64,000 bases of DNA, taken from contig NZ_CP042430.1 in the NCBI RefSeq assembly GCF_007970665.1, positions 2,728,001 through 2,792,000 on the forward strand, written 5' to 3'. Of this stretch, positions 8,204 through 59,285 are shown in pieces (within the stretch, counting starts at the first letter, position 1; each line of letters opens with the position of its first letter). The notes below the pieces were generated by a model. It did not search any database and was not told the DNA's origin. It saw only the letters and a program-made list of their open reading frames with translations. The position numbers and the translations under genes are program-made. This DNA comes from Baekduia soli. Its GTDB lineage: Bacteria > Actinomycetota > Thermoleophilia > Solirubrobacterales > Solirubrobacteraceae.

Positions 8204-9129
8204 GTCGTGTCCTTTGGTCGGTCGCCGTCGGGCTGCACGCGCACGCCCCCCGCCAGGTCGCCGATCGCGTCGACGACGGTGTTGCTCACGCGGTCGCGGT
8301 AGCCCGTGGCCATGGCGACGGTGAAGGTCGTGCGGCAGGCGGCGCCCAGCGCGGCGGGCACGTCGAGCGCGTCGGCGAGCCCGAGGTAGAGGTCGAGGTC
8401 CTTGGCCATGAGCGCGTTGGTGAGCCCGCCCTCGATGTAGTCGCCCTCGACGATGCGCGGGAACCGGTGCTCGGAGGCCCAGTTGGCCCCCGTGCTGGCG
8501 TTGATGACCTCGAGCAGCTGGCGCGGATCCAGCCCGGCCTTGACGCCGACGACCAGCGCCTCGGCGGTCGCGGCAAGGTTCATGCCGTTGAGGTAGTTGT
8601 TGACGACCTTGGTCGCATGGCCCGCGCCGGCCGCGCCGCAGTGGAACACGCGCGACCCGATGACGTCGAAGACCCCCTGCGCGCGCTCGATCAGCTCGGC
8701 GCGGCCGCCGACCATGAGCGTCAGCGTCCCGGCGTCGGCGCCGCCAGGGCCGCCCGAGATCCCGGCATCCAGGAACGCCGCGCCGCGGGCCTCCAGCTCG
8801 CGCTCCCAACGCGCCGCGTTGCCCGGGGTCGCCGTGCTCAGGTCGATCACGAGCTGCCCGGGCCGGGCGGCGCCGATGACGCCGTCGGGGCCGGCCATGG
8901 CCGTCGCGATGGCGGCGTCGCTGGGCAGCGAGAGCAGGACGATGTCGGCGGCCGCGGTCGCCGCGCCGGTGCCGGCGGCGGGCTCGAGGCCGAGCTGCGC
9001 GGCGCGCCCGTCGACGACGTCGGAGCCGTGCACGACGTGGCCGGCGTCGCGCAGGCGCCCACCCATCCGGCTGCCCATGTTGCCCAGGCCGATCATCGCG
9101 ATCGACGGCATGGCGGGGGAGGCGCTCAC
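8200..9129 (-). CDS. NAD(P)-dependent beta-hydroxyacid dehydrogenase (3-hydroxyisobutyrate dehydrogenase family)
   Basis: A two-domain dehydrogenase of about 309 residues. The Rossmann motif is MIGLGNMG, the substrate loop reads DAGISGGPGGADAGTLTLMV, and the catalytic Lys lies in GHATKVVNN. These define the 3-hydroxyisobutyrate/tartronate semialdehyde reductase family, oxidising a beta-hydroxyacid or reducing a semialdehyde. I chose GTG 9129 because it overlaps the upstream stop as GTGA, the pattern used throughout this operon; ATG 9111 is an equally plausible start. The 3' end overlaps the SDR start as ATGA. Next to a CoA-transferase and an HMG-CoA lyase-like enzyme it probably acts on a branched C4-C6 intermediate. 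Confidence 0.88.
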   Translation of the reverse strand: MSASPAMPSIAMIGLGNMGSRMGGRLRDAGHVVHGSDVVDGRAAQLGLEPAAGTGAATAAADIVLLSLPSDAAIATAMAGPDGVIGAARPGQLVIDLSTATPGNAARWERELEARGAAFLDAGISGGPGGADAGTLTLMVGGRAELIERAQGVFDVIGSRVFHCGAAGAGHATKVVNNYLNGMNLAATAEALVVGVKAGLDPRQLLEVINASTGANWASEHRFPRIVEGDYIEGGLTNALMAKDLDLYLGLADALDVPAALGAACRTTFTVAMATGYRDRVSNTVVDAIGDLAGGVRVQPDGDRPKDTT

Positions 9130-10022
9130 GCGGCGACGGGGGCGAAGGTGCCCGCCTTGTAGGTCTGTCCGGGCAGCTCCTTGCCGAGCTGCTCGGACAG
9201 CCACGCGGCGGTCTCCAGCATGGCCTCGAGCGAGATCCCGGTCTCCAAGCCCATCCCGTGCAGCAGGTAGACGAGGTCCTCCGTGGCGATGTTGCCCGTG
9301 GCGCGCGGGGCGAAGGGGCAGCCGCCCGTGCCGCCGCTGGAGGCGTCCAGCAGGGCCACGCCGGACTCGACGGCCGCGACCGCGTTGGCGTAGCCCGTGT
9401 TGCGGGTGTTGTGGAAGTGGCAGCCGACGGGCAGGCCGAAGGCCGCGACGCCCGCGACGAGTTCGCGGACCTGCGACGGCACGCCGACCCCGATCGTGTC
9501 GGCGAGCATGAGCTCGTCGGGCCCGAAGCCGGTCAGCGTCTCGGCCAGGCCGAAGACCTTGGCGGGCTCGACGCGCCCCTCGAACGGGCAGCCGAACGCC
9601 ACGCTGATCGTGACCGACACGGGCAGGCCGTCATCGTGGGCCCGGCCGACGATCCGCTCGCCGACGCCCAGGGCGTCGGCGACCGTCATGCCCTGGTTGC
9701 GCTCGCAGAAGGTGTCGGTGGCCGGGAAGGCGTAGTGGATCTCGTCGACGCCCGCGGCGATGGCGCGGTCGTAGCCGCGCTCGTTGAGCACCAGGCCGGC
9801 GTAGACGACGCCCTCGACGCGGTGCAGCGCCGCCATCACCTCCTCGGCCCCGGCCATCTGGGGCACGCGCTTGGGATGCACGAAGCTCACGGCCTCCACG
9901 CGGGGGACGCCGGCGGCGGCCAGGCGGTCGCAGAGCTGGGCCCGGATCCCGGGGTCCAGCGTGCGGGCCTCGTTCTGCAGGCCGTCGCGCGGCCCCACGT
10001 CGCAGATCTCGATGCGGTTCAT
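9126..10022 (-). CDS. hydroxymethylglutaryl-CoA lyase family protein
   Basis: A 298-residue TIM-barrel lyase of the HMG-CoA lyase/isopropylmalate synthase superfamily. It has Arg12-Asp13 in GPRDGLQNE, metal ligands His202 and His204, and the complete HMGL signature with catalytic Cys235 in GGTGGCPFAPRATGN and Asn244. It should split a 3-hydroxy-3-methylglutaryl-CoA-like thioester into acetyl-CoA and a beta-keto acid. The gene overlaps the CoA-transferase stop (ATGA) and the next gene (GTGA), so CoA activation, cleavage and beta-hydroxyacid oxidation are made together. Leucine breakdown is a textbook alternative, but no methylcrotonyl-CoA carboxylase is present. Compare the divergent paralogue at 55234. 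Confidence 0.9.
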   Translation of the reverse strand: MNRIEICDVGPRDGLQNEARTLDPGIRAQLCDRLAAAGVPRVEAVSFVHPKRVPQMAGAEEVMAALHRVEGVVYAGLVLNERGYDRAIAAGVDEIHYAFPATDTFCERNQGMTVADALGVGERIVGRAHDDGLPVSVTISVAFGCPFEGRVEPAKVFGLAETLTGFGPDELMLADTIGVGVPSQVRELVAGVAAFGLPVGCHFHNTRNTGYANAVAAVESGVALLDASSGGTGGCPFAPRATGNIATEDLVYLLHGMGLETGISLEAMLETAAWLSEQLGKELPGQTYKAGTFAPVAA

Positions 10023-11269
10023 ACGACGTCGGCCTCCTTGAGGCGGGCGAGCTCGGCATCGTCGATGCCGAGCAGGCCGCCGTAGATCTCGGCGTTGTGC
10101 AGGCCCATCTCCCACGGGCCGGTCCAGACCGCGGCGCCCGGGGTCTCCGACAGCTTGGGGTGCACCGCGGGAGCCTTGAGCTCGCCGACCTCGGGATCGT
10201 GCATCTGGACGATCGCCTCGCGCGCGGCGTACTGCGGGTCCTGGAAGATGTCGGCGATGCTGTAGACCGGCCCACAGACGACGCCTGCGTCGTTGAGCAC
10301 GCGGTCGATCTCCGTGGCGTCGCGCTCGGCGGCCCACTCGGCGACGATGCGGTCGAGCTCCGTCGCGTTCTCACCGCGGGCGCGGTGGGTGGCGAAGCGC
10401 TCGTCGGTCAGCATGTCCTCGCGGTCCATGACCGTGCACAGCCGCATCCACAGGTTCTCGGCGTTGGCGGCGATCACGACCCACTTGCCGTCGCGCGACT
10501 TGTAGACGTTGGACGGCGCGATCCCGCTGAGGAACGTGCCCGAGGGCTCGCGCACGACGCCGAGCCGGTCGTACTCGGGCACCATCGACTCCAGCAGGCT
10601 GAAGCAGCTCTCCATGATGGAGGCGTCGATGACCTGGCCCTTGCCGCCTCGCGCGTCGCGGTGGTAGAGCGCCATGAGGACGCCCTGGGCGGCGAACATC
10701 GCCGCCAGCGAGTCGCCGAGCGAGATGCCCAGCCGCGGCGGCGCCTCGCCCGGCGTGCCGTTGATGTAGCGCAGGCCGCCCATCGCCTCGCCGGCCGAGG
10801 CGAAGCCCGCGCGCCCGGCGTAGGGGCCCGTCTGCCCGTAGCCCGAGACGCGGGCGATGACCAGACCCGGGTTGATCTCCCAGAGCTGCTCGGGGGAGAG
10901 GTTCCAGCGCTCGAGCGTGCCGGGGCGGAAGTTCTCGACGAGGACGTCGCTCTCGGCGACGAGGCGCTTGAGCAGCTCCTGGCCCTCCTCGACGCGGAGG
11001 TTCAGCGTGATGAGCTTCTTGTTGCGCGACTGCACCGGCCACCACAGGCCGCGGCCCTCGTAGTGCGCGGTGCCCCAGTCGCGGAGGGTGTCGCCGCGCT
11101 GGGGGGACTCGACCTTGATGATCTCGGCCCCGAAGTCGCCCAGGATGCGCCCGACGAACGGCCCGGCCAGCAGCACGCCGAGCTCGATGACCCGGACGCC
11201 CACCATCGGGCCCTGCTGCACGCCGGCCGCGGGTGAAGCGGTCGGGTTGACGGCGACCTCGTCGTTCAC
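10019..11269 (-). CDS. CaiB/BaiF family (class III) CoA-transferase
   Basis: A 416-residue family III CoA-transferase, moving CoA between acyl groups through an aspartyl-CoA intermediate. Family features are GVRVIELGVLLAGPFVGRIL, IKVESPQRGDTLRDWG, SRNKKLITLNLR, GYGQTGPYAGRAGF, and a probable catalytic Asp in LGISLGDSLAA. GTG 11269 is a confident start: GGAGG sits five bases upstream. It is the first gene of the minus-strand operon 6807-11269 and its promoter region carries the ATGTCCGACAT box. It is one of three CaiB-like genes in the window (others at 27275 and 60267), each in a different operon. The acyl substrate cannot be told from sequence. Confidence 0.92.
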   Translation of the reverse strand: MNDEVAVNPTASPAAGVQQGPMVGVRVIELGVLLAGPFVGRILGDFGAEIIKVESPQRGDTLRDWGTAHYEGRGLWWPVQSRNKKLITLNLRVEEGQELLKRLVAESDVLVENFRPGTLERWNLSPEQLWEINPGLVIARVSGYGQTGPYAGRAGFASAGEAMGGLRYINGTPGEAPPRLGISLGDSLAAMFAAQGVLMALYHRDARGGKGQVIDASIMESCFSLLESMVPEYDRLGVVREPSGTFLSGIAPSNVYKSRDGKWVVIAANAENLWMRLCTVMDREDMLTDERFATHRARGENATELDRIVAEWAAERDATEIDRVLNDAGVVCGPVYSIADIFQDPQYAAREAIVQMHDPEVGELKAPAVHPKLSETPGAAVWTGPWEMGLHNAEIYGGLLGIDDAELARLKEADVV

Positions 11270-12196: not shown

Positions 12197-13045
12197 TCAC
12201 TCGACGCGCTGCAGCTCCTCGAGGCCCAGCAGCGCGTTGACGTCGTCGAACGACGCGAAGCGGTCGGCGTAGCCCGCGGTCGTGCCCGTGCGCAGCAGTT
12301 CGCGGCAGACCTCCTCGTAGGCGCGGGCGAACACCCAGGTCTGGGTGGCGGGGAAGATGACGACCCGGTAGCCCATCTCCTGCAGCTCGTCGGCGGTCAG
12401 CGCCGGGGTCTTGCCGGTCTCGGACATGTTGGCCACCGACGGCACGTCGACGCGGCGGGCGATCTCGGCCAGCTGCTCGCGGCTGCCGGGCGCGTCGACG
12501 AACGCGAGGTCGGCACCGGCCTCCGCGTAGGCGTTGCAGCGGTCGATGGCCTCGTCGAGGCCGAGGGGCTGCAGCGCGTCGGTGCGGGCGATGATGAGCA
12601 TCGACGGGTCGTGGCGCGTCGCGACGGCGGCGCGGATCTTGAGCACCATCTCGTCGACCGCGATGACCTGCTTGCCCTCCATGTGCCCGCACTTCTTCGG
12701 GAAGACCTGGTCCTCGATCTGGATCGCGCCGGCGCCGGCCCGCTCCATCTCGTGCACGGTGCGCTTGACGCCGGGGATCGCGCCGTACGCCGTGTCGCAG
12801 TCGACGATCACCGGGGTCGTGGAGACGTTGGTGACGCGGCGCACGCTCTCGACCATCTCCTCCAGGCCGACCATGCCGATGTCGGGGAGCCCGTGATGGT
12901 GGGCGGCCGCGGCGTAGCCGCCGTGGTAGAAGGCCTCGAAGCCGAGCTGTTGGGCGATCCGCGCGGTCAGGCCGTCGTGGACGCCCATGGCCACGAGGAT
13001 CCGCGGGTCCTGGAGGCGCTCGCGGAGGTTCGGTGCTTCGCTCAT
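12197..13045 (-). CDS. isocitrate lyase/PEP mutase superfamily lyase (2,3-dimethylmalate or methylisocitrate lyase-like)
   Basis: A 282-residue TIM barrel of the PEPM/ICL superfamily. It carries the Mg2+ region IVDCDTAYG, EDQVFPKKCGH with the lyase-type loop KKCGH, and the following GK. KKCGH separates C-C lyases (isocitrate, 2-methylisocitrate, 2,3-dimethylmalate) from PEP mutases. It is too short for isocitrate lyase proper. It closes an operon whose two preceding genes are a LeuC/LeuD-like dehydratase, linked by ATGA overlap. In nicotinate-fermenting bacteria an aconitase-type dimethylmaleate hydratase feeds 2,3-dimethylmalate lyase, giving propionate and pyruvate; this pairing suggests a similar reaction here (inference). 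Methylcitrate-cycle use is the main alternative. Confidence 0.85.
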   Translation of the reverse strand: MSEAPNLRERLQDPRILVAMGVHDGLTARIAQQLGFEAFYHGGYAAAAHHHGLPDIGMVGLEEMVESVRRVTNVSTTPVIVDCDTAYGAIPGVKRTVHEMERAGAGAIQIEDQVFPKKCGHMEGKQVIAVDEMVLKIRAAVATRHDPSMLIIARTDALQPLGLDEAIDRCNAYAEAGADLAFVDAPGSREQLAEIARRVDVPSVANMSETGKTPALTADELQEMGYRVVIFPATQTWVFARAYEEVCRELLRTGTTAGYADRFASFDDVNALLGLEELQRVE

Positions 13046-13560
13046 CGTCGTCCTTGGGTCGAGGAGGTCCGGCGCAGGCGCTCCTGGGCCCAGCCGACGA
13101 GACCGCCGGCCTCCAGGATCTCGCCGACGAACGGCGGCCGCGGCGGAATGGTCCAGGTGTCGTCGCCGCGCGTGATGGTGCCGGCGGTGAAGTCGATGCG
13201 CAGCTCGTCGCCGTCGGCGATGGCGGCGACCGCCTCCGGGGACTCGGCCACGGCGAGGCCGACGTTGATGCAGTTGCGCAGGAAGATGCGCGCGAAGCTG
13301 CCGGCGACGATGGCCTGCACGCCGCGTGCCATGATCGCGACCTGGGCCTGCTCGCGCGAGGAGCCCATCCCGAAGTTGCGCCCGCCCACCAGGATGTCGC
13401 CGGGGGCCACGGCCGCGCCGACCGCGGCGTCGTAGGTCTCCAGGAGGTGACGACCGAGCTCCTCCGGATCGGTGATGTTCAGGTAGGGCCCGGGGATGAT
13501 GTTGTCGGTGTTGACGTCGTCGCCGAGCACGACGGCGCGGCCGGTGATCACGTCGCTCAT
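13042..13560 (-). CDS. LeuD-like small subunit of an aconitase-family hydro-lyase
   Basis: A 172-residue swivel domain of the aconitase superfamily. VLGDDVNTDNIIPG and NFGMGSSREQA are the substrate-binding loops of isopropylmalate dehydratase small subunits; GSFARIFLRNCINVGLA is the conserved core. It forms a heterodimer with the large subunit encoded just upstream (ATGA overlap) and overlaps the lyase downstream in the same way. Size and two-subunit organisation match the archaeal-type LeuD/HACN and DmdB group. No leuA or leuB of the leucine pathway is near (the dehydrogenase at 37104 is of tartrate/malate type), so a catabolic role is preferred. Confidence 0.88.
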   Translation of the reverse strand: MSDVITGRAVVLGDDVNTDNIIPGPYLNITDPEELGRHLLETYDAAVGAAVAPGDILVGGRNFGMGSSREQAQVAIMARGVQAIVAGSFARIFLRNCINVGLAVAESPEAVAAIADGDELRIDFTAGTITRGDDTWTIPPRPPFVGEILEAGGLVGWAQERLRRTSSTQGRR

Positions 13561-14843
13561 GCCATCACCTCCGCCGGGTCCACCAGTTCGCCCGAGACCG
13601 CGGCGGCGCCCGCGACGTAGGCGTTGGCCAGGTAGACCGCCGAGTCGGCATGCCCCATCCTGCCGCGGAAGTTGCGGTTCGTCGTGGCCACGGCCACCTC
13701 CCCGGCGTCCAGGATGCCCATGTGGCCCCCGAAGCAGGCCCCGCAGGTCGGCATGGAGATCGCCCCGCCGGCCTCGACGATCTGCTCCAGCAGGCCCTCC
13801 TTCAGCGCCTGGCGGTACACGCGCTGGCTCGCGGGCACGACGATGAGCCGCGTCCCGCGCGCGACGCGGCGGCCGCCCAGCACCTCGCAGAGCTGGCGCA
13901 GGTCGGTCATCGTGCCGTTGGCGCAGTTGCCGACGTAGACCTGGTCGACCCGTACGCGGTCGACGGTGTCGACCGGCACGACGTCGGCCGGCGAGGGCGG
14001 GCGCGCGACGAGCGGGCGCATGCCGTCCAGGTCGATCTGCGCGCGCCCGGCGTAGGAGGCCCCCTCGTCGGGCAGGACGGGCTCCAGCGGCCGGCCGGTG
14101 ACCTTGTCGGCCAGCCACGCCAGCGTCGTGGCGTCGGCGGGCACGATCCCGGTCTTGGCGCCGGCCTCGACGGCCATGTTGCACAGCGCCATGCGCTCGT
14201 CGATGCTCGTCGCGTCGATGGGCGGCCCGGCGAACTCCAGCGCGGCGTACGTGCCGCCCGCCACGCCCGACTGCGCGAGGTAGGCGAGGATGAGGTCCTT
14301 GCCGGTGACCTGCGGCCCGGCGGTGCCGCGGTACTCGACCCGGATGGTCTGCGGGACGCGGACCCACAGCTCGCCGAGGGCCAGCGCGGCGGCGATGTCC
14401 GTCGAGCCCACGCCGGTGCCGAAGGCCCCGAAAGCCCCGTAGGTGCAGCTGTGGGAGTCCCCGCCCGGGATGAAGTCGCCCGGGGCGATGAGGCCCTCCT
14501 CGGCCAGCACGGTGTGCTCGATGCCGCCGTTGGGGGTGCTGCCGGCCTCCCAGTACTGCTCGATGCCCTGCTCGCGCGCGAAGCGGCGCAGGCGGCCGAC
14601 GAGCTGGGCGCTGCGGACGTCCTTGGCGGGGGCGAAGTGATCGGCGAACAGCGCGACGCGCGAGGGGTCGAACACCCGCCGCGCGCCGATCTTCTCGAAC
14701 TCGCGCAGCGCCACCGAGCCCGAGACGTCGTTGGTCATGACGAGATCGACGCGGGCCAGGCCGAAGGCGCCGGGCGTCAGGTCCTGCACCCCGTGGGCGG
14801 CGAGGATCTTCTGGGCCACGGTCCACGGTGCGGTCATCGTCAC
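13557..14843 (-). CDS. LeuC-like large subunit of an aconitase-family hydro-lyase ([4Fe-4S])
   Basis: About 428 residues with aconitase motifs: the substrate loop GGDSHSCTYG, the first cluster Cys in VYVGNCANG, and the other two in PTCGACFGG. The three Cys bind the catalytic [4Fe-4S] cluster that dehydrates or hydrates a hydroxy-di/tricarboxylate. Length matches the archaeal-type LeuC/DmdA group rather than bacterial LeuC. The start is GTG 14843, which overlaps the preceding stop as GTGA, or ATG 14837 six bases on. With LeuD-like and PEPM/ICL-like partners it forms a three-gene cassette that would hydrate an alkylmaleate-type acid and cleave the product (inference). Confidence 0.88.
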   Translation of the reverse strand: MTMTAPWTVAQKILAAHGVQDLTPGAFGLARVDLVMTNDVSGSVALREFEKIGARRVFDPSRVALFADHFAPAKDVRSAQLVGRLRRFAREQGIEQYWEAGSTPNGGIEHTVLAEEGLIAPGDFIPGGDSHSCTYGAFGAFGTGVGSTDIAAALALGELWVRVPQTIRVEYRGTAGPQVTGKDLILAYLAQSGVAGGTYAALEFAGPPIDATSIDERMALCNMAVEAGAKTGIVPADATTLAWLADKVTGRPLEPVLPDEGASYAGRAQIDLDGMRPLVARPPSPADVVPVDTVDRVRVDQVYVGNCANGTMTDLRQLCEVLGGRRVARGTRLIVVPASQRVYRQALKEGLLEQIVEAGGAISMPTCGACFGGHMGILDAGEVAVATTNRNFRGRMGHADSAVYLANAYVAGAAAVSGELVDPAEVMA

Positions 14844-15615: not shown

Positions 15616-16386
15616 TCAGCCCGCCGCCGTGCGCGTGCCGCCGTCGGCGCCGATCATGGAGAAGAACTTCTCGTCCTGGATCGTGCCGGGGGAGGGGTAG
15701 GCGACCTTGGAGTGGCTGAGGCCCAGGCGCACGATCGTCTCGGCGAAGGCGACGGCCGCCGGTCCCGGGTTGATCACGGGCACGGGCAGGTGCTCGGTCA
15801 GGTACGACGCGGCCTGGTGCATCGTGGTCGAGCCGATCACGATGACGTCGGCGCCGTCGGACTCGATGGCCTTCATCGCCTCGGCAGCGAGCTTCTCGTA
15901 CATCTCCTCCTCCTTGCCGGCGAACAGCGCCTCGACGTCGGGCGGGATGTTCACGGCACGGATCGAGGCGACGTTCTCCGTCAGCCCGTACTCCTTGAAG
16001 AGCTTGCGGTAGAAGAACCGCCACGTGTCCCACATCGTGATGACCGAGAACTTCTGGCCGAGCAGGCCGGCGAGGTGGAACGCGACCTGGCCGGGCCCGA
16101 TGACCGGGATCGTCAGCCGCGAGCGCAGGATCTGCAGGCCGGAGTCCGAGACGGTGTCCATGACGACGGCGTCGTAGCCCTCGTCCTCGGCCTGGAGGCC
16201 GGCCTCGGCGACGTAGGCGTCGAAGAGGATCGACTCGTAGTAGGAGTCCAGCAGGAAGCAGCTGTTGCGCACCGGCACGAAGTCGATGGTGACCCCCGGC
16301 CCGAGGAGGTCGTCAGGGACCTGGGCGGCGCGGGCCTTGACCCCCGCGTCGTCGAACGGGAACGGGATGATGTACTTGATCCGCAC
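15616..16386 (-). CDS. Asp/Glu/hydantoin racemase-fold protein lacking both catalytic cysteines
   Basis: A 256-residue protein with the two-lobed Asp/Glu racemase fold: EDEGYDAVVMDTVSDSGL in lobe one, VIVIGSTTMHQ in lobe two, then PVINPGP. Cofactor-independent racemases carry one Cys in each lobe (ACFDDPG and LGCAGM in hydantoin racemases). Here these positions are Thr78 and Ser186, so classic two-base racemisation is not possible. The only Cys shared with the paralogue at 56199 is Cys43. First gene of its operon, with a TTGACA-17-TAGAAC promoter and an operator-like box across the start site. It probably isomerises, decarboxylates or binds a small diacid or hydantoin; a new activity is possible. 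Confidence 0.8.
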   Translation of the reverse strand: MRIKYIIPFPFDDAGVKARAAQVPDDLLGPGVTIDFVPVRNSCFLLDSYYESILFDAYVAEAGLQAEDEGYDAVVMDTVSDSGLQILRSRLTIPVIGPGQVAFHLAGLLGQKFSVITMWDTWRFFYRKLFKEYGLTENVASIRAVNIPPDVEALFAGKEEEMYEKLAAEAMKAIESDGADVIVIGSTTMHQAASYLTEHLPVPVINPGPAAVAFAETIVRLGLSHSKVAYPSPGTIQDEKFFSMIGADGGTRTAAG

Positions 16387-16486: not shown

Positions 16487-17299
16487 CTACTCCGGGCGGG
16501 AGGTGCCGCGCCACATCTTCTTGTACGTGCGGCTGAGGTAGGCCATGTGCTTGCGCATCTCCTCGCCGGCCGCGTCGCTGTCGCCGGCCTCGATCGCACC
16601 GAGGATCGCCCGGTGGTCGTCGTTGAGGCGCCGGGCGAACCGGTCGCTCATCTCCTCGCGGCTCAGCCGCGTCTGCAGCACGGAGAACACGGGCTGGGCG
16701 GCGATGCAGATGAGCGCGTTGCCGCAGCCGTCGACGACGGCGGTGTGGAAGTCCTTGTTGTAGACGTAGTGCTGCTGGCTGCCGAGGATCGTGGGGTCGT
16801 CGACGATCGTCTCGCGCAGGCGCTCCAGGTCCTCCTCGCTGCGCCGCGCGGCGCACTGGCGCGCGGCGAAGACCTCGAGCAGCTCGCGCGCCTCGAGGAA
16901 CTCGCTGAGCGTCACGTCCTCGGACTCCGAGAGCAGGCTGATGTTCGCCTGCAGGAACGTCGAGATGTGGTCGACGGTCGGCAGCGTGACGAAGCTGCCG
17001 CCGCCGGCCCCCTTGGCCGTCCGGATGAGGTTCTGGGCGGCCAGCACCCGCAGCGCCTCGCGGACGGTGCCGCGGCTGACGCCGAACTCGCTGGCCAGGA
17101 CCGCCTCGTTGGGCAGGCGCGCGCCGCGACGCAGCTCGCCCCGCATGATGAGGTCGCGCAGCTGGTCGTAGACCTGCTCGTAGGCCTTGCGCACCCGCTT
17201 GACGGGCGTGGCCGCCGACGGCGGCTCGGCCGGCGCGAGCCGGGAGACCACGCGCGCCCGCCGCTCCTCGCTGCTCCCGTTGTCGATGGGCTCGGACAC
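16487..17299 (-). CDS. GntR family transcriptional regulator, FCD (FadR) subfamily
   Basis: A 270-residue regulator. Start GTG 17299 follows GGGAGACACC; the frame is open further upstream but without a better start. An N-terminal extension of about 30 residues precedes the winged helix (VYDQLRDLIMRGELRRGARL, then NEAVLASEFGVSRGTVREAL with GxVR-type recognition helix, wing GAGGGSFV). The helical FCD effector domain has metal-binding histidines in NKDFHTAVV, DDHRAIL and RKHMAYL, where carboxylate effectors usually bind. It lies between the acyl-CoA dehydrogenase and the racemase-like operon. FadR-type operators resemble the ATGTCSGACAT boxes found across the island, so this is the leading candidate for their regulator (inference). 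Confidence 0.9.
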   Translation of the reverse strand: MSEPIDNGSSEERRARVVSRLAPAEPPSAATPVKRVRKAYEQVYDQLRDLIMRGELRRGARLPNEAVLASEFGVSRGTVREALRVLAAQNLIRTAKGAGGGSFVTLPTVDHISTFLQANISLLSESEDVTLSEFLEARELLEVFAARQCAARRSEEDLERLRETIVDDPTILGSQQHYVYNKDFHTAVVDGCGNALICIAAQPVFSVLQTRLSREEMSDRFARRLNDDHRAILGAIEAGDSDAAGEEMRKHMAYLSRTYKKMWRGTSRPE

Positions 17300-17384
17300 G
17301 GTGTCTCCCAGGTCGTCGATGCGCGGCAGGATAGCCGGGGCGGCGGCCGTGTCCCCGCCCACGGCCGCGGGCGCCTGCCCGGGA

Positions 17385-18563
17385 TCAGATCTTGTGCAGC
17401 TCGAGCAGCCTCCGGGCGATCACGAGCTGCTGGATCTCGTTGGATCCCTCGCCGATCAGCAGGACGGGCGCGTCCCGGTACAGGCGCTCGATCGGGTACT
17501 CCTGGGAGTAGCCGTAGCCGCCGTGGATGCGCATCGCCTCCAACGCGTTCTCCTCGGCGACCTCCGTGGCGAACAGCTTGGCCATGCCGGCCTCGAGGTC
17601 GGCGCGCTCCCCGGTGTCCTTGCGCCGGGCGGCATCGATGGTCAGCAGCTCGGCGGCCCGCAGCTTGGTGGCCATCATCGCGAGCTTGGCCTGGATGAGC
17701 TGGTGGTTGGCGATCGGCTTGCCGAACGTCTCGCGCTCCTGCGCATAGCGCAGCGAGTTGTCCAGCGCCGACTGCGCGATCCCCAGGCCGCGGGCGGCCA
17801 CGTTGACCCGGCCGAGCTCGACGCCGGCCATGAACTGCTTGAAGCCCACGCCCTCCTCGCCGCCGAGGATGCTGTGGGCCGGGGTGCGGTAGTTCTCGAA
17901 GACCAGCTCCGTGGACTCCACGCCCTTGTAGCCGAGCTTCTTGAGCTTGGGCGGGATCGTCAGGCCGGGCTGCTCGTCGACGTCGGGGTCCTTCTCGATG
18001 ATGAACGTCGTCATGCCCCGGTGGCGCGGCTCGGCCGTCGGGTCGGTGACCGCGAGCAGCATCACGATGCCGGCCCGCAGGCCGTTGGTGACCCACATCT
18101 TCTGGCCGTTGATGACGTAGTCGTCGCCGTCGCGGACGGCCCGCGTGCGGATCGACTGCACGTCGGTGCCGGCGTGGGGCTCGGTCATCGAGAACGCGCA
18201 GCGCACCTCGCCCGTCGCCATCTTGGGCAACAGGCGGTCCTTCTGCTCCTGGGTGCCGAACGTCTTGATCATGAACGACGCGATGAAGTGCGTGTTCACG
18301 ACGCCCGACAGCGAGATCCAGCCGCGCGAGAGCTCCTTGACGATCAGCGCGTAGGTCGTCAGGTCCAGGCCCAGGCCGCCGTACTCCTCGGGAATCGTGG
18401 TCCCGAAGAGCCCCAGCTCCTTCATCGTCTCCACGAGCGGGCCGGGGAACTCGTCGGCACGCTCGTACTTCATGACGTTGGGCAGGACGTCCTTGTCGAC
18501 GAAGTCCCGGATCGTCCCGAGGATGTCCTGCTGGACGTCGGTGAGCTCCATGACGGTGCTCAT
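17385..18563 (-). CDS. acyl-CoA dehydrogenase
   Basis: A 392-residue FAD flavoprotein that should introduce a trans-2 double bond into an acyl-CoA. Landmarks: the FAD/substrate loop AFSMTEPHAGTDV, WVTNG, the region RVNVAARGLGIAQSALD, the FAD contact QLIQAKLAMMATKL, IHGGYGYSQEYPIERLYRD, and the segment GEGSNEIQQLVIARRLL that carries the probable catalytic Glu. Length and motifs are those of short/branched-chain enzymes. Start ATG 18563 overlaps the MmgE/PrpD stop as ATGA. In this operon it pairs with an MmgE/PrpD protein, a combination seen in methylcitrate-like or dicarboxylate catabolism. Chain specificity cannot be judged from sequence. Confidence 0.93.
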   Translation of the reverse strand: MSTVMELTDVQQDILGTIRDFVDKDVLPNVMKYERADEFPGPLVETMKELGLFGTTIPEEYGGLGLDLTTYALIVKELSRGWISLSGVVNTHFIASFMIKTFGTQEQKDRLLPKMATGEVRCAFSMTEPHAGTDVQSIRTRAVRDGDDYVINGQKMWVTNGLRAGIVMLLAVTDPTAEPRHRGMTTFIIEKDPDVDEQPGLTIPPKLKKLGYKGVESTELVFENYRTPAHSILGGEEGVGFKQFMAGVELGRVNVAARGLGIAQSALDNSLRYAQERETFGKPIANHQLIQAKLAMMATKLRAAELLTIDAARRKDTGERADLEAGMAKLFATEVAEENALEAMRIHGGYGYSQEYPIERLYRDAPVLLIGEGSNEIQQLVIARRLLELHKI

Positions 18564-19956
18564 GCGGCCACCTGCTCGCGGGCCGAGGCGTGGCCGAGCG
18601 CCTTGAACGCCTCCAGGTCGGCCAGCCCTCGAGGTGCAGGACCGCCTGCTCGATCGCGTCGACGTCGTCGTCGTCCAGGGCCAGCTCCGCGTTGGCGCGG
18701 TACTTGGCCTGCACGTCGGCATCGCTCAGCGGGTTCTCCTCGCCGCCGCGCTGGTGCTCGAGCTCGGCCTCCAGGACGGTCCCGTCGGTGAGCGTGATGC
18801 GCACGCCGCCGGGGAAGGCCTTGCCGAACGTGGGGTAGTCCTTGGTCTCGTAGGTGACCTTGTGGGCGAGCTCGAGGACCTTGGTCTCCCGGATCGCGTC
18901 GCCGACGAAGGTCATGACGTCGACCTTGCCGCGCACGAGGTAGGAGGCCACGGCGTACGGGATGCTGAACTTCGCGTCGTACTCGCTGCGCGGGTCGTGC
19001 TTGGCGGCCAGCGGCTCGAGGACGATCGGCACCACGTCGGCCGGGGCGATGGCCACGATGGAGGCGATGTCGTCGACGTCGAGCCTGCGGCCCGCGGTCG
19101 CCTGGATCGTGGCGTCCAGCGGTGCGTGCACGAAGTGGCAGGCCGCGTAGGGCTTGTAGGCGATCTTCGGCGTCTCCCAGCGCTCGCCGAGGTCGGCGAG
19201 CTGGCCCTCGATGTCGAGGTCGTCGCGGCGCAGGTAGGCGTTGTAGAGGCCGAAGCGCCCCTCGATGACCGTCTTGGGCCCGGTCTCGCCGTGGGCGGCG
19301 AGGGACGCGGCCAGCAGGCCGGAACGGGCGGCGAAGCCCGGGTGCAGGCGCTTGGTCGAGGAGCCGTCGGAGAGATGCTCGAGGATCCCGGAGGCCAGGC
19401 TGCCGGCGATGCCCAGGGCCTGGGTCGTCGTCGCGGCGTCGAGGCCGCGGATGCGCGCGGCGGCGGCGGTGGCGCCGTAGACGCCGAGCACGCCGGTGGG
19501 GTGGAAGCCGATCTGGTGGAAGAGCGGTCCGGCGGCCAGGCCGAGGCGCAGCACGACCTCGTTGCCGGCGACGAGGGCGGCGAGGAGGTCGGCGCCCGAG
19601 GCGCCGTGGGCCTCGGCGGCGGCCAGGGCGGCGGGCACGACGGCGACGCTGACGTGGGCGATGGCGCCCGTGTGCGTGTCGTCGAAGTCCAGCGCGTGGC
19701 AGGTGGCGCCGTTGGAGAAGGCGGCGTCGAAGCTCGGCAGGCCGTGGCCGGCGCCGAAGGCCGTGGCCGGGCCCGTGGTGCCGGGCTCGAGCATCGCCTC
19801 GCGCGCCCCGGAGGCCACCCCGAGGGCGCAGCCGGCCAGGCCGCAGCCCAGCGTGTCGAGGAGGTGCAGCTTGGCGGCCTGCGCGACCTCGGGCGGCAGC
19901 GCGTCGGCGGTGAGGGCGGAGGTGAACGCGGCAAGGCGTTCGGCGACAGTGCTCAT
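18560..19956 (-). CDS. MmgE/PrpD family protein, frameshift near the C-terminus
   Basis: From ATG 19956 the frame gives an MmgE/PrpD protein (2-methylcitrate dehydratase/cis-aconitate decarboxylase/immune-responsive-gene family): DTLGCGLAGCALG, NGATCHALDFDDTHTGAIAH with the conserved DFDD, HPTGVLGVYGATAAAARIRG, RLHPGFAARSG, KPYAACHFVHAPLDA. After AIEQAVLHLEG the frame breaks; one extra base near 18624-18629 would give LADLEAFKALGHASAREQVA and a TGA overlapping the next ATG as ATGA. The repaired protein is 465 residues, a normal length. The break lies in a CCC run and probably reflects a dropped base. First gene of the operon; promoter at 20059-20087. Confidence 0.85.
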
Positions 19957-21270: not shown

Positions 21271-23388
21271 ATGAAGCGACTCGGAGTAGACGTCGGCGGC
21301 ACCTTCACGGACCTCATCTATGTGGACGACGAGGCCGGGAAGATCCTCATCCACAAGCTTCCGTCGACGCCCGACGACCCGTCGCGCGGCACGATCGAGG
21401 GCATCAAGCAGCTCACGGAGCAGGCCGAGGTCGTCCCCGGCGACCTGGATCAGGTCTTCCACGGCACGACGATCGCCACCAACATCGTCATCGAGCACAA
21501 CGGCGCCAAGGTGGGGATGATCACCACCGAGGGGTACCGCGACATCCTGCACATCGCGCGGCACAAGAAGCCGATGAACTTCTCGAACTACCAGGACCTT
21601 CCCTGGCAGGCCTATCCGCTCGCGCGCCGCCGCTACCGCCTCACGGTCCCCGAGCGCGTCACGGGCGACGGCGAGATCCTCGTCCCGCTCGACGAGGATC
21701 GCGCCCGCGAGCAGGTGCTCAAGCTCAAGGAGGCCGGCGTCGAGGCGATCGCCGTCTGCTTCCTGTTCTCCTTCCTCAAGCCCGACCACGAGCAGCGCGT
21801 CGCCGAGATCATCCGCGAGGAGTTCCCGGAGGCGTTCCTGTCGGTCTCCTCCGACGTGCTGCCCCAGTACCGCGAGTACGAGCGCTTCTCGACCGTGGCG
21901 CTCAACGCCTACGTCGGGCCGAAGGTCGCCACCTACGTGCGCCGCCTGGAGGACGAGCTGCGCGCGCTCAACGTGCGCACGGGCGTGCATCTCATGACGT
22001 CGGGCAGCGGCGTCTCCACCGCCCAGGGCGCGATCGACCGTCCCGTCAACCTGCTCATGTCGGGCCCCGTGGCCGGCGTGGTGGGCGGCATCTGGGTCGG
22101 CAAGTCGGCCGGATTCGACAGCGTCATCACCCTCGACGTCGGCGGCACCTCGGCCGACATCGGCCTGGCCCAGGGCGGCCACCTGCGGATGAAGCACCTG
22201 CTCGACACACGGGTCGGGCCGTACCAGGCGATGATCCCGATGGTCGACGTCGACACGATCGGCGCAGGCGGCGGCTCCATCGCCTACGTCGACGGCGGCG
22301 GCATCTTCCGGTCGGGCCCGCGCTCGGCCGGCGCCCAGCCCGGGCCGGCGGCCTACGACCGCGGCGGCACCGAGCCGACCTCGACCGACGCCATGGTCAA
22401 CCTCGGCTGGCTGCTGCCCGAGGACTTCCTCGGCGGGGCCATGACGCTCAAGCCCGAGCTCGCGCGCACCGCGTTCGAGCCGGTCGCCGAGAAGCTCGGC
22501 ATGACCGTCGAGGAGGCCTCGATGGGCGCCGTGCAGATCGCGAGCCACTCCATGGTGCAGTCCATCGAGGAGAACTCGGTCCGCAAGGGCTTCGACCCGC
22601 GCGACTTCGCGCTCGTCGCCGAGGGCGGCGCCGGCCCGGCGTTCGCCGCGCACATCGCGATCGAGGTCGGCACGCCGGCCGTCGTGGTGCCGCCCTTCCC
22701 GGGCGTCACCGCCGCGCTGGGCCTGCTCGTGACCGACGAGGTCTACGAGTACGTCACGACGACCTACCAGCGGCTCTCGGCGCTCAACGCCTCCGAGCTC
22801 GAGGCGCGCTACGTCGAGCTCGAGCAGCAGGCCGCCAAGCAGCTGGCCGACGACGGCATCGCGCCGGAGAACCAGGTCATCCAGCGCCTGGCCGACTGCC
22901 GCTACCTCGGGCAGGGCTACGAGCTGCGCATCGAGGTCGGCTCCGGTGACCTCGACGCCGCCTGGTCGGAGGACGTCGCGTCCAAGTTCCACGACGCGCA
23001 CGAGAAGGAGTACTCGCGCCGCTTCGAGGACTCCGACATCGAGATCCCCAACATCCGCGTCCGCGGCATCGGGCTCATCCCCTCGCTCGAGATGCCCGAG
23101 GTCGAGAAGGGCGGCGCGTCCGCGGAGGCCGCGCTGCGCCACGAGCGCGACGCCTGGTTCCCGATCGACGGCAAGCTCCAGCAGGTGCCGACGCGCTTCT
23201 ACGCGCGTGAGGCGCTGCTGGCCGGCAACACGATCGAGGGCCCGGCCGTCGTCAACCAGTACGACTCGACGACGGTGATCCCGCCCGGCCTGAAGGCGGA
23301 GATCGACCGCTACGGCAACATCGTCATCCGCGTCGACGCGTCGGCCCAGACCGACATCATCAGCACCGCCGCCACCACGGGCTCCTAG
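21271..23388 (+). CDS. hydantoinase/oxoprolinase family protein, HyuA-type subunit
   Basis: A 705-residue HyuA-like ATPase subunit. It has the ASKHA phosphate loops DVGGTFTDLIYVD and LDVGGTSADIG, the HGTTIATNIVIEHNG motif, SGPVAGVVGG, and GAGGGSIAYVD. Such proteins pair with HyuB subunits to use ATP in opening cyclic amides (N-methylhydantoin, 5-oxoproline, caprolactam) or in carboxylating ketones (acetone and acetophenone carboxylases). HyuB follows after 31 bases. No gamma subunit of an acetone carboxylase is nearby and amidases are, so lactam or hydantoin hydrolysis is favoured. It is the most upstream of three HyuA genes in the window and shares the same domain order with the others. Confidence 0.92.
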   Translation: MKRLGVDVGGTFTDLIYVDDEAGKILIHKLPSTPDDPSRGTIEGIKQLTEQAEVVPGDLDQVFHGTTIATNIVIEHNGAKVGMITTEGYRDILHIARHKKPMNFSNYQDLPWQAYPLARRRYRLTVPERVTGDGEILVPLDEDRAREQVLKLKEAGVEAIAVCFLFSFLKPDHEQRVAEIIREEFPEAFLSVSSDVLPQYREYERFSTVALNAYVGPKVATYVRRLEDELRALNVRTGVHLMTSGSGVSTAQGAIDRPVNLLMSGPVAGVVGGIWVGKSAGFDSVITLDVGGTSADIGLAQGGHLRMKHLLDTRVGPYQAMIPMVDVDTIGAGGGSIAYVDGGGIFRSGPRSAGAQPGPAAYDRGGTEPTSTDAMVNLGWLLPEDFLGGAMTLKPELARTAFEPVAEKLGMTVEEASMGAVQIASHSMVQSIEENSVRKGFDPRDFALVAEGGAGPAFAAHIAIEVGTPAVVVPPFPGVTAALGLLVTDEVYEYVTTTYQRLSALNASELEARYVELEQQAAKQLADDGIAPENQVIQRLADCRYLGQGYELRIEVGSGDLDAAWSEDVASKFHDAHEKEYSRRFEDSDIEIPNIRVRGIGLIPSLEMPEVEKGGASAEAALRHERDAWFPIDGKLQQVPTRFYAREALLAGNTIEGPAVVNQYDSTTVIPPGLKAEIDRYGNIVIRVDASAQTDIISTAATTGS

Positions 23389-23419: not shown

Positions 23420-25345
23420 ATGTCCCTTGTGACCTACGAGGTCGGCCGGACCCCCGGGAACCCCACGCGCGAGCGGGTCGAGGTCGACCCCATCACCATG
23501 CGGGTGCTCGGCGGGGCCTTCCACGCGATCGCCGCCGAGATGGCGGGCGTGCTGTTCCGCATGTCCTACAGCTCGATCATCCGCGAGTCCGAAGACCTCG
23601 GCGCCGGGATCTTCGACGCCCAGGGCCGCGAGCTCTGCGAGTCGGACTCCACGCCGATGCACATCGGTTCGCTGCCCTGGTACATCCGCGGCTTCATGGA
23701 CCGGCTGGAGGGGAAGATCAAGGAGGGCGACGTCATCGTCCACAACCACCCCTACCTCGGCGCCTCGCACAGCCCGGACATCGCGGTGGCGGTGCCGATC
23801 TTCGCCGAGGGCGAGCTGCTGGGCTTCGCCGCGGTGACCGCGCACGTCCTCGACGTCGGCGGCTCCTACCCGGGCATCAACGCCGACGCCTACGACGTGT
23901 ACGCCGAGGCCAAGCTCTACAACGCGCTGCGCTGGTACAACGAGGGCGAGCTCAACGAGGACGTCGACCGCCTCATCTTCGACAACGTCCGCACCGAGTC
24001 CATGAACCGCGGCGACATGAACGCCATGCTCGCCGCGTGCCAGCTCGGGCGCGACCGGTTCCTGCGCCTGACCGGGCGCTACGGCGTCGAGACGGTCATG
24101 AGCTCGGCCTACGGGTGGATGGACTACTCGGAGAAGATGCTGCGCGAGCAGATCTCCAAGCTCCCCGACGGCGAGTACAAGGCGCCGACGGCGTGGCTCG
24201 ACGACGACGCGCGCAACCGCGGGGTGCGCCTGCGCGTGGAGACCAAGGTCATCGTCGAGGGCGACTCGATCACCATCGACCTGACCGGATCGCAGGCCGA
24301 GGTGCCCACGGGCTTCAACGTGCCCTTCGAGGGCTCGCTGCTGGTCGGGGCGTACTACGCCATCCGCACGCTCCTGCTCGACGAGGACACGTTCCCCGAG
24401 CACGTGCCCCAGAACGACGGCGTCTTCCGGCCCGTCAACGTCATCGCGCCGAAGGGGACGATCTTCAACCCCAACTTCCCGCGGGCGTGCTTCTCGCGGT
24501 TCTGCCAGGTCCAGCGCGTGGTCGACAACACGATCCTGGCCATGGGCGAGGTCCTGCCCCAGCAGGTCACGGCCGGCAACTCGGCGGCGATCCACTTCTG
24601 CGCCTACTCCGGGTTCACCACGGAGTCGGGCGAGTACTGGCTCTACCTCGAGGTCAACGAGGGCTCCTACGGCGGCCGCTACGGCAAGGACGCCATGGAC
24701 TCCGTCGACAACCTGATGGCCAACACGCGCAACAACCCGATCGAGGAGCTCGACCTGCGGTTCCCGCTGCGCTGCGACCAGTACGAGCTGCGGCCCGAGC
24801 CGGCCGCGCCCGGCAAGTGGCGCGGCGGCGTCGGCGTCATCCGGCGCAACCGCTTCCTGGTCGACGGCACCTACTCGTGCGAGGGCGATCGCCAGTGGGA
24901 CCCGCCGCGCGGGATCTTCGGCGGCTGGGACGGGCTCGTGGCCTCCACGCACAAGAACCCCGGCACGCCGCAGGAGGAGTACCTGGAGGCCAAGGTGACC
25001 GGCGTCGACTTCAAGGCCGGCGAGTTCATCGAGTTCCGCCAGCCCAACGCGGGCGGCTACGGCGATCCGCTGGAGCGCGAGCCCGCCATGGTCCGCGAGG
25101 ACGTGCTCGACGACTTCACGACGATCGAGCTGGCGCGTGACGCCTACGGCGTGATCTTCGTGGACGAGAAGGACCTGGAGATCGACGAGGCGGCCACCAA
25201 GGCCCGCCGCGAGGAGCTCCGCGCGTCGCGCAACGGCGGCCCGAGCGGCTCGCTGAACGACCTGTTCAGCCGGGATGCCGGCAAGCTCATCCCGTCCAAG
25301 AGCCCGACCTCCGAGGCCGGCAACGCGGCGTTCGGGCTCCTGTAG
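23420..25345 (+). CDS. hydantoinase B/oxoprolinase family protein, HyuB-type subunit
   Basis: A 641-residue HyuB-like subunit beginning at ATG 23420 behind AGAGGAACC. Family landmarks: DPITMRVLGGAFHAIAAEM, RESEDLGAGIFDAQGRELC, DSTPMHIGSLPWYIRG, HNHPYLGASHSPDIAVAVP, NEGSYGGRYGKDAMDSVDNL and GGYGDPLEREP. The His/Asp-rich segment HNHPYLGASHSPDI is the likely metal site. It completes the ATP-dependent amidase or carboxylase with the HyuA encoded directly upstream. The C-terminal tail after residue 590 is longer than in the other two HyuB proteins of the window. RidA-like and amidase genes follow within 20 bases and in overlap, suggesting processing of the opened product. Confidence 0.92.
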   Translation: MSLVTYEVGRTPGNPTRERVEVDPITMRVLGGAFHAIAAEMAGVLFRMSYSSIIRESEDLGAGIFDAQGRELCESDSTPMHIGSLPWYIRGFMDRLEGKIKEGDVIVHNHPYLGASHSPDIAVAVPIFAEGELLGFAAVTAHVLDVGGSYPGINADAYDVYAEAKLYNALRWYNEGELNEDVDRLIFDNVRTESMNRGDMNAMLAACQLGRDRFLRLTGRYGVETVMSSAYGWMDYSEKMLREQISKLPDGEYKAPTAWLDDDARNRGVRLRVETKVIVEGDSITIDLTGSQAEVPTGFNVPFEGSLLVGAYYAIRTLLLDEDTFPEHVPQNDGVFRPVNVIAPKGTIFNPNFPRACFSRFCQVQRVVDNTILAMGEVLPQQVTAGNSAAIHFCAYSGFTTESGEYWLYLEVNEGSYGGRYGKDAMDSVDNLMANTRNNPIEELDLRFPLRCDQYELRPEPAAPGKWRGGVGVIRRNRFLVDGTYSCEGDRQWDPPRGIFGGWDGLVASTHKNPGTPQEEYLEAKVTGVDFKAGEFIEFRQPNAGGYGDPLEREPAMVREDVLDDFTTIELARDAYGVIFVDEKDLEIDEAATKARREELRASRNGGPSGSLNDLFSRDAGKLIPSKSPTSEAGNAAFGLL

Positions 25346-51281: not shown

Positions 51282-51383
51282 GGGGCAAGGCTACGGGCGG
51301 AGATGCCGCGGCCGGGCCGACCCCGTCAGGACCATATGTATTCTACGGGATGCATCGGTATACAAACGGGGACGGACGAGCAC

Positions 51384-58581: not shown

Positions 58582-59285
58582 GCTGCTCGTCCTCCGGGGT
58601 CGGCGTGGCCGAGCGTACGCAGGTGCTCGACGGTGGAGAGCGCGCCGCGCTCGATGTGCTCGCGCATGCACGCGTGCGCGGCCCGCGGGTCCCGGGCCTC
58701 GATGGCCTGGGTCACGCGGTCGTGCTGGGAGTACGAGAGCGGTGCGCGGTCGGTCAGCCAGATCGCGCGCACGGGCACGGCCTGCCAGAGGCGGGCGATG
58801 AACTCCTGCAGGTACCGCGACGCCGCGGCGTTGGAGATCGCCCGGTGCCAGGCGGCGTTGAGGTCGGCCGCGTCGGTGCGGTGGGGGTCCTGGAGGGCGA
58901 CGCCGAGCTCGTCGTGCACCCGCCGGATCTCGGCGACGTCGTCGGGGCTGCCCTCGACCGCGGCGCGCTCGGCGGCCATCGGCTCGAGGATGACCCGCAG
59001 GCCGTAGACCTCGACGGCGTCCTCGGGGGAGAACTCGGCCACGGCGGTGCCGCGGTGGGCGTGGTGGACGACGAGGCCCTCGGACTGCAGCAGGCGCAGG
59101 GCCTCACGGATGGGGGTGGGGCTCATCTCGAGCTCCTCGACCAGCCGCGCGACGCGCAGGTGCTCGCCGGGGTGGTAGCGACCGTGCTCGATGGCCTCGC
59201 GCAGGGCGCGGAACGCGGCCTCGGTCTTCGTCAGTGAGGGATGATCGGCGGCCATCAGGTGGCGGATCGGATGGCGGGACCGCAT
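58578..59285 (-). CDS. GntR family transcriptional regulator, FCD subfamily
   Basis: A 235-residue regulator. Winged helix: TEAAFRALREAIEHGRYHPG, then LVEELEMSPTPIREALRLLQ (recognition helix SPTPIREAL), wing HRGTAVAEF. FCD-domain histidines appear in LNAAWHRAIS, SQHDRVTQA and MREHIERGA. The start is ATG 59285 or ATG 59255; neither has an ideal ribosome site. It is divergent from the CitE-like operon, with an AT-rich promoter between them, and co-transcribed with an amidase. It probably controls both directions. Confidence 0.9.
   Translation of the reverse strand: MRSRHPIRHLMAADHPSLTKTEAAFRALREAIEHGRYHPGEHLRVARLVEELEMSPTPIREALRLLQSEGLVVHHAHRGTAVAEFSPEDAVEVYGLRVILEPMAAERAAVEGSPDDVAEIRRVHDELGVALQDPHRTDAADLNAAWHRAISNAAASRYLQEFIARLWQAVPVRAIWLTDRAPLSYSQHDRVTQAIEARDPRAAHACMREHIERGALSTVEHLRTLGHADPGGRAA

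What the first reader, a model, noticed from the sequence alone, without database searches (positions are those of the whole stretch)
15616..16386. Asp/Glu-racemase-fold proteins that have lost both catalytic cysteines, in two conserved copies
Seen: Thr78 in MDTVSDSG and Ser186 in LGSTTMHQ/IGSTTMHQ replace the two Cys of hydantoin, aspartate and glutamate racemases, both here and in the paralogue at 56199-56942, with gap-free alignment over at least 210 residues. Only Cys43 is shared. Known: racemases and maleate isomerase need two Cys; arylmalonate decarboxylase needs one. Inference: a different chemistry, for example decarboxylation, isomerisation with Ser/Thr or Cys43, or ligand binding.
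Basis: partly seen in the sequence, partly recalled or inferred. Interest (0 to 1): 0.75.

Follow-up and report, generated by a model that had tools for sequence, protein, structure and literature searches.

The report
Racemase-like enzymes without catalytic cysteines
A widespread family of bacterial proteins keeps the shape of a well-known class of enzymes but has swapped both of that class's essential cysteines, nearly always for a threonine and a serine, and it often sits among genes that look made for breaking down ring-shaped nitrogen compounds, so it probably does a reaction not yet assigned to this fold.

Summary
The gene at 15616-16386 lies on the minus strand. It and its paralogue at 56199-56942 (+) are 58% identical, match PF01177, and carry Thr78 and Ser186 where allantoin/hydantoin racemases have their catalytic cysteines. 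The genome has a third copy. They belong to a sharply bounded clade (100/100 support; 305-433 bits against at most 151 for other full-length rows) seen in several phyla. Of 96 distinct members none has Cys at either site; Ser186 is invariant. Cys43 is no candidate (5 of 96). The racemases' substrate-binding Asn is also lost, while Ser80, Trp119, Trp122, Thr187, Thr188, His190 and Asn206 are near-invariant and clade-specific. In OpaE, a characterised relative, Cys-to-Ser changes leave 4.8% or at most 0.3% activity. Many copies lie near HyuAB-type lactam hydrolases, amidases, CoA-transferases and C-C lyases, though 13 of 52 have no recognised amide hydrolase nearby. Likeliest reading: a cysteine-free catabolic enzyme of cyclic-amide or N-heterocycle breakdown, most likely an isomerase of the ring-opened acid; that step is inferred. 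No described function was found in the library searched. New variant of a known fold family.

The parts
15616..16386 (-). Copy A: cysteine-free-site racemase-fold protein, 256 aa
   Evidence: PF01177 8.1e-33; pLDDT 92.7
16138..16161 (-). Motif MDTVSDSG, residues 76-83; Thr78 codon 16153-16155 at the first catalytic Cys site
15814..15834 (-). Motif GSTTMHQ, residues 185-191; Ser186 codon 15829-15831 at the second catalytic Cys site; His190 clade-specific
56199..56942 (+). Copy B, 247 aa, 58% identical; Thr78 at 56430-56432, Ser186 at 56754-56756
16487..17362 (-). GntR/FCD regulator next to copy A
13557..14840 (-). Aconitase/3-isopropylmalate dehydratase family large subunit (start approximate)
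13042..13614 (-). LeuD/DmdB family small subunit, TIGR02087 over its cut-off (start approximate)
12197..13045 (-). PEP-mutase/isocitrate-lyase family protein (methylisocitrate-lyase-like, below that model's cut-off)
18541..19956 (-). MmgE/PrpD family (end of gene uncertain)
17385..18572 (-). Acyl-CoA dehydrogenase (start approximate)
10019..11248 (-). CoA-transferase family III (start approximate)
9126..10034 (-). HMG-CoA-lyase-like, PF00682 (start approximate)
21271..23388 (+). HyuA, nearest to caprolactamase alpha (584.5 bits, cut-off 1000)
23420..25345 (+). HyuB
51375..53477 (+). HyuA upstream of copy B (start approximate; 549.4 bits to caprolactamase alpha, cut-off 1000)
53474..55237 (+). 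HyuB upstream of copy B
55231..56175 (+). HMG-CoA-lyase-like, directly upstream of copy B (start approximate)
57196..58584 (-). Amidase near copy B (start approximate)
58578..59285 (-). GntR/FCD regulator near copy B
59359..60270 (+). HpcH/HpaI aldolase/citrate lyase family protein
61487..62449 (+). Polysaccharide-deacetylase-family protein, PuuE allantoinase-like (341 bits, cut-off 425; start approximate)

Best explanation
[quoted passage not shown] They cannot use the two-cysteine proton relay (follows from the sequence; mutants of a relative agree). They are dedicated enzymes in gene clusters that look built for breaking down cyclic amides and N-heterocycles: HyuAB or a PuuE-like amidase opens the ring, amidases or isochorismatase-type amidohydrolases remove the nitrogen, and CoA-transferases and C-C lyases finish the carbon skeleton (gene content shown for many but not all copies; substrates and reaction order inferred). 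The step I think most likely is an isomerisation of the ring-opened unsaturated acid or half-amide (cis-trans or double-bond shift), with Thr78, Ser80, Ser186 and Thr187/188 holding the carboxylate and His190 or Asp81 moving the proton (inferred). This would parallel where maleate isomerase, also of this superfamily, sits in nicotinate breakdown (recalled). Class (non-racemase catabolic enzyme of such pathways): about 0.75. With this particular step: about 0.35, the figure given below.
For: Clade: HMM scores 305-433 bits inside and at most 151 among the other rows; 62 tree rows (3 of them RAC2) on one branch of length 1.65 with 100/100 support. Residues: 96 of 96 members without Cys at 78 and 186, Asp81 96/96, His190 95/96, Thr188 96/96, Asn206 94/96, Trp119 93/96; 36 outgroup members are Cys/Cys 29, Gly/Cys 4, other 3. 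The Asn of the outgroup's NPN motif (25 of 36) is I/V/F in 96 of 96. Fold: pLDDT 92.7, best matches allantoin racemases 5LFD Z 27.8 and 3QVK Z 27.6. OpaE C90S keeps 4.8%, C199S and the double mutant at most 0.3% (PMC12661438, passages). Context: amide or lactam hydrolase within 10 kb in 39 of 52 full-flank copies; 4 of 6 clade genes from a Pseudomonadota sample lie near one of the genome's 1-5 HyuA matches, chance about 1e-7; LeuD/DmdB, PEP-mutase/ICL-family and MmgE/PrpD genes beside copy A.
Against: No substrate or activity is known; the isomerase step rests on gene company alone. HyuA is near only 19 of 52 copies, and 13 of 52 have no recognised amide hydrolase within 10 kb (12 of those have a SnoaL gene, several OYE-type, CoA-transferase or HMGL genes). 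Other PF01177 genes also lie near HyuA in 3 of 10 cases against 10 of 17 for the clade; the three are in the home genome and its family member G044, both rich in HyuA. In the home genome alone the link is weak (3 of 3, but 12% of the genome is that close). Known maleate isomerase needs a nucleophilic Cys (recalled). No coordinates were available to check which residues face the pocket.
Confidence: 0.35

Rival explanations
1. Still a racemase or epimerase, with Thr78/Ser186 or His190/Asp81 as the acid-base pair, supplying one enantiomer of a hydantoin, lactam or carbamoyl acid to HyuAB or amidases.
For: Fold nearest to allantoin racemases; racemases beside hydantoinases are the classical arrangement (recalled); lack of the first Cys is seen in 5LFD.
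Against: Ser variants of OpaE keep 4.8% or at most 0.3% activity; the outgroup's NPN Asn is gone in 96 of 96; many other positions changed with it.
Confidence: 0.15
2. A cofactor-free decarboxylase in the manner of arylmalonate decarboxylase, with the hydroxyl-rich site stabilising the enediolate and His190 as proton donor.
For: Arylmalonate decarboxylase shares the fold (3DG9 Z 16.7, 3IXL Z 16.6) and shows that one of the two Cys can be absent (PMC4996985, passages).
Against: In that enzyme Cys188 is the only proton donor, and the residue aligned with it here is Ser186; it is not among the sequence hits.
Confidence: 0.15
3. A serine-type hydrolase on the racemase fold: Ser186 nucleophile, His190 base, backbone NH of 79 and 187 as oxyanion hole, acting on a cyclic amide, imide or half-amide.
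For: Ser186 96/96, His190 95/96, Asp81 96/96; in OpaE the oxyanion hole is said to be backbone NH just after each Cys, i.e. residues 79 and 187 here; many neighbours handle amides.
Against: Amidases, isochorismatases and HyuAB are often already there; I know of no precedent in the fold; geometry not checked.
Confidence: 0.12
4. Not an enzyme: a ligand-binding, scaffold or regulatory pseudoenzyme.
For: Both catalytic residues lost; a further degenerate paralogue (RAC2) lies directly downstream in Neorhizobium, Rhizobium, Tistrella and Variovorax loci.
Against: The replaced site is frozen (Ser186 96/96), unlike RAC2, whose motifs differ from locus to locus and whose branches are long; the gene sits in catabolic clusters.
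Confidence: 0.15

Closest known systems
Allantoin racemase KpAllR (3QVJ, 3QVK) and Pseudomonas AllR (5LFD)
   Same: Fold over 234-243 residues (Z 27.6-27.8), 28-29% identity; Asp81, Gly185 shared with Cys-bearing relatives
   Different: KpAllR's two Cys are Thr78/Ser186 here; NPN Asn lost; clade-specific Ser80, Trp119, Trp122, Thr187/188, His190, Asn206. 5LFD itself has Gly at the first site
OpaE, fungal epimerase of the same family (9QBX)
   Same: Same family and fold, Z 22.7
   Different: Keeps the Cys90/Cys199 dyad, which is essential
Arylmalonate decarboxylase (3DG9, 3IXL)
   Same: Fold, Z about 16.6; one of the two Cys missing naturally
   Different: Keeps Cys188 as the only proton donor; no sequence hit
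Maleate cis-trans isomerase (4FQ5, 2XED)
   Same: Fold, Z about 15; similar place in an N-heterocycle pathway (recalled)
   Different: Needs a nucleophilic Cys (recalled; the 2XED title names a covalent succinylcysteine intermediate)

Membership tests
Asp/Glu racemase superfamily (PF01177) | Profile match above curated cut-off | tested here: met
   114.4 and 94.7 bits against 31
Asp/Glu racemase superfamily (PF01177) | Fold | tested here: met
   Model pLDDT 92.7; 5LFD Z 27.8, rmsd 2.2 over 234
Allantoin/hydantoin racemase | Two catalytic cysteines | tested here: not met
   Thr/Ser/Ala at 78 and Ser at 186 in 96 of 96; but 5LFD itself lacks the first
Allantoin/hydantoin racemase | Substrate-binding Asn12 and Thr118/Thr119 (KpAllR numbering) | tested here: inconclusive
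   NPN Asn is I/V/F in 96/96; residue 117 Thr in 90/96, residue 118 Met in 86/96; the match to KpAllR numbering was made by eye
Allantoin/hydantoin racemase | Racemase activity | not testable with these tools
   needs an assay
Arylmalonate decarboxylase | Cys188 as proton donor | tested here: not met
   Aligned residue is Ser186; the N-terminal half of that alignment is unreliable and hhalign did not find the match
Maleate isomerase | Nucleophilic Cys at the first site | tested here: inconclusive
   No Cys at 78 in any of 96 members, but maleate isomerase was compared by fold only, not residue by residue

The most novel reading that the evidence does not exclude
A whole enzyme family on the Asp/Glu racemase fold that has moved to serine/histidine chemistry: Ser186 as nucleophile beside the ancestral oxyanion hole and His190 as base, splitting or isomerising a cyclic amide or its ring-opened product, with no cysteine, metal or cofactor.
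Probability: 0.15. Interest if true: 0.75.

Novelty: new variant of a known kind. Interest (0 to 1): 0.52.

Why it matters
The Asp/Glu racemase superfamily is a textbook case of cysteine acid-base chemistry. Clade members in the plasmid records seen are named 'aspartate/glutamate racemase family protein' or 'hydrogenase expression protein HupH'. If a clade found in several phyla uses Thr/Ser and perhaps His instead, such names mislead, the fold has a further chemistry, and an unassigned step in the breakdown of lactams, imides or N-heteroaromatics becomes directly testable.

Tried and rejected
Cys43 as replacement nucleophile: rejected, Cys in 5 of 96 members. Another universal pocket Cys: rejected; Cys75 is common (74 of 96) but absent from A and B, and member L140 has a single Cys, which by eye aligns near residue 221. 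A decayed gene pair: rejected, dN/dS 0.235 (A/L030), 0.216 (B/L035), 0.129 (B/L039). 'Always beside HyuAB or LeuCD': rejected as stated, HyuA 19 of 52 and LeuC-like 2 of 52 full-flank copies. Mapping the site onto arylmalonate decarboxylase residue by residue led nowhere: the N-terminal half did not align reliably and hhalign gave 2.9% probability. Pocket geometry: no model file was in the Python box. A published account of such a clade: not found in searches of the held library, which lacks most subscription journals.

Limits of the counts. One of the two peptide patterns covered the MDTVSDSG motif, so conservation of residues 76-83 is partly by construction; the GSTTMH motif was not bait. 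The profile searches (three-row alignment A2; 30-row A4, built mostly sequences) used no pattern. Frames under 150 aa were left out, which drops a clade fragment at a contig start (G392:C65, 150.8 bits over positions 138-247). Five RAC2 rows were left out of the counts. The 52 full-flank copies are not independent (near relatives such as L107 and L113) and exclude copies B and C, whose flanks held were too short. The distance of 11.5 kb was set after the distances were known. The gene clustering found the clade gene in 78 of 82 sources (L062, L064, L071 and L085 missed, apparently because an overlapping longer frame was chosen); one search replaces it.

Full report
Observation. Window 15616-16386 holds a 256-aa gene on the minus strand and 56199-56942 a 247-aa gene on the plus strand. 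They are 58% identical, with no gap in the first 247 columns. Both match PF01177 (8.1e-33 and 9e-27) and no NCBIfam model above its cut-off. Against Klebsiella allantoin racemase 3QVJ, Thr78 falls on the first and Ser186 on the second catalytic Cys. The PDB also holds a variant of that enzyme (3QVK) with Ser at the two aligned sites, and it matches the clade profile slightly better than the wild type (117.6 against 113.6 bits).

Copies in the genome. The genome held is one contig of 5.21 Mb with seven PF01177 matches. Three belong to this clade: A, B and a third, C, at 1012722-1013477 with IDTMSDSG and GSTTMHQ but no Cys43. Of the other four, by reading, L001 keeps both Cys, L002 and L007 look like aspartate and glutamate racemases, and L006 keeps only the first.

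The clade. With A, B, C, L009 and L010 these give 85 rows: residue 78 is Thr in 82 and Ser in 3, residue 186 Ser in 85, Cys43 in 4. One of the two bait patterns covered the first motif. Profile searches without bait: with A2 (three rows), 3 of 101 relatives of the window's genome, itself included, have a clade-level match (G000, G038, G044) and 2 of 296 genomes of its phylum (G000, G038, overlapping); with A4 (30 rows), 6 of 398 Pseudomonadota genomes do, one of them (G388) being the centre chosen because it holds a member, i.e. 5 of the other 397. Scores are bimodal: 305-433 bits inside and at most 151 among the other rows. After removing repeats there are 96 members: Thr/Ser 90, Ser/Ser 5, Ala/Ser 1; 36 outgroup members are Cys/Cys 29, Gly/Cys 4 and one each of three other kinds.

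Tree. On 95 rows the clade is one branch of length 1.65 with 100/100 support, 62 rows (three of them RAC2), spanning Actinomycetota, Pseudomonadota, Bacillota and single MAGs labelled Bacteroidota, Dormiibacterota and Nitrososphaerota. A groups with a Solirubrobacterales MAG (L030), B with L035 and L039, C with L009. Two rows outside the clade also lack both Cys (L130, L134) and five lack one, so the label 'no Cys' needs 3 changes on the tree. The tool flagged long branches, among them L010 and two RAC2 rows, whose places are unsure; the root is a midpoint.

Residues. Clade-specific and near-invariant: Ser80 95/96, Trp119 93/96, Trp122 93/96, Tyr126 95/96, Thr187 95/96, Thr188 96/96, His190 95/96, Asn206 94/96. 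The NPN Asn, which I take by eye for KpAllR's substrate-binding Asn12, is I/V/F in 96/96. Asp81, Gly185 and Arg88 are shared with the Cys-bearing relatives. The site was rebuilt and then frozen, which speaks for function rather than decay; dN/dS is 0.13-0.24 for A and B against near relatives.

Structure. AlphaFold with A4 gave pLDDT 92.7, pTM 0.89. Nearest solved structures are allantoin racemases: 5LFD Z 27.8, rmsd 2.2 over 234; 3QVK Z 27.6, rmsd 2.5 over 243 (Foldseek agrees). Decarboxylase and maleate isomerase follow at Z 15-17. Coordinates could not be examined.

Why probably not a racemase. In OpaE, C90S keeps 4.8% and C199S or the double mutant at most 0.3% of activity, and the paper calls the pair conserved across the superfamily (PMC12661438; passages, sections 6 and 8). 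This clade resembles such a double mutant fixed in nature. Against this, 5LFD, deposited as an allantoin racemase, has Gly at the first aligned site.

Company. Beside A: GntR, an aconitase-family pair (small subunit over the LeuD/DmdB cut-off), a PEP-mutase/isocitrate-lyase-family protein, MmgE/PrpD, acyl-CoA dehydrogenase, CoA-transferase, HMGL, and divergent HyuAB resembling caprolactamase (584.5 bits, below that model's cut-off of 1000). Caprolactamase, an ATP-dependent HyuAB-type lactam hydrolase, is described in PMC6061476 (passages). Beside B: HyuAB, HMGL, amidase, GntR, a citrate-lyase-family protein, a PuuE-like protein (same calls). Beside C: HyuB and HyuA at 0.4 and 2.4 kb. Elsewhere three broad settings recur, with variation: HyuAB, isochorismatase, CoA-transferase, HMGL and SnoaL (several sphingomonads, Lysinibacillus, others); a PF11723 Rieske oxygenase, an iron-sulphur flavin reductase, amidases, a peptidase-like protein (42 bits to PRK06915, cut-off 428; called M20 here from recall), a glyoxalase/dioxygenase-superfamily protein and an HsaD/BphD-like hydrolase below cut-off (best seen in Pseudomonas L069; parts of it in Zoogloea, Herbaspirillum and Acinetobacter loci); and, on plasmids, MmgE/PrpD with an isocitrate lyase/PEP mutase family gene (Tistrella) or with a gene annotated oxaloacetate decarboxylase, HyuAB and a cysteine hydrolase (Neorhizobium). 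A Variovorax copy has a cysteine hydrolase and two polysaccharide deacetylases. Of 98 clade genes in 96 sources, 52 have at least 9 kb on both sides; of these, within 10 kb, HyuA 19, amidase 19, isochorismatase 14, the M20-like gene 14, CoA-transferase 20, HMGL 17, SnoaL 27; any of the amide-hydrolase types 39; none of them 13.

Is the HyuA link chance? In the 6 genomes of the Pseudomonadota sample, with 1 to 5 HyuA matches each, 4 clade genes lie 3.4-10.5 kb from one, start to start; chance about 1e-7 with a distance limit set afterwards. G738 and G388 have none near. In the own genome all 3 do, but it has 33 distinct HyuA genes and 12% of it is that close (0.0019). Over the 14 genomes, 10 of 17 clade genes and 3 of 10 other PF01177-type genes are near one; the three are in the own genome and G044, both rich in HyuA. 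The link is good in the Pseudomonadota sample and weak evidence at home.

Mechanism. Shown: fold, loss of both Cys, frozen Thr/Ser site, gene company. Inferred: the substrate is a cyclic amide or, more likely, its ring-opened acid. A LeuCD/DmdB-like hydratase with a PEP-mutase/ICL-type lyase recalls the dimethylmaleate-to-dimethylmalate ending of anaerobic nicotinate breakdown, and an isochorismatase-type amidase with a racemase-fold protein recalls the maleamate-to-fumarate ending of aerobic nicotinate breakdown (both recalled; one search found no paper). An isomerase is what this gene set seems to lack. I rate the class at 0.75 and class plus step at 0.35.

Verdict. No characterised member was found in the searches named. 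New variant of a known kind.

Noticed in passing
L107, L109, L111, L112, L113, directly downstream of the clade gene: RAC2, a degenerate paralogue nested in the clade on the tree (motifs such as ADFGDYG and AGGTQKSG, differing between loci), possibly a partner subunit.
   Followed up: partly
window 18541-19956 (-) and 35622-30718 (-): The MmgE/PrpD and the third HyuA frames reach no stop of their own and read on through the next genes; three HyuA genes elsewhere appear as two rows each. Suggests frameshifts or assembly indels in this genome.
   Followed up: no
own genome: 36 HyuA rows, 33 distinct genes after merging neighbours, in one 5.2 Mb genome (1 to 14 rows in the other 13 genomes searched); three HyuAB pairs lie in this window.
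   Followed up: partly
window 14843-15598 (-): Neighbour of copy A with no Pfam or NCBIfam match at the limits used.
   Followed up: no
L006, G000:C1:2300689: Another PF01177 paralogue of this genome that keeps the first Cys (IGCFFDPA) but not the second (VPGDGV).
   Followed up: no
L025, L026, L027, L128 and 5LFD: Allantoin-racemase-like sequences with Gly at the first site and Cys at the second; the four loci form one supported group.
   Followed up: no
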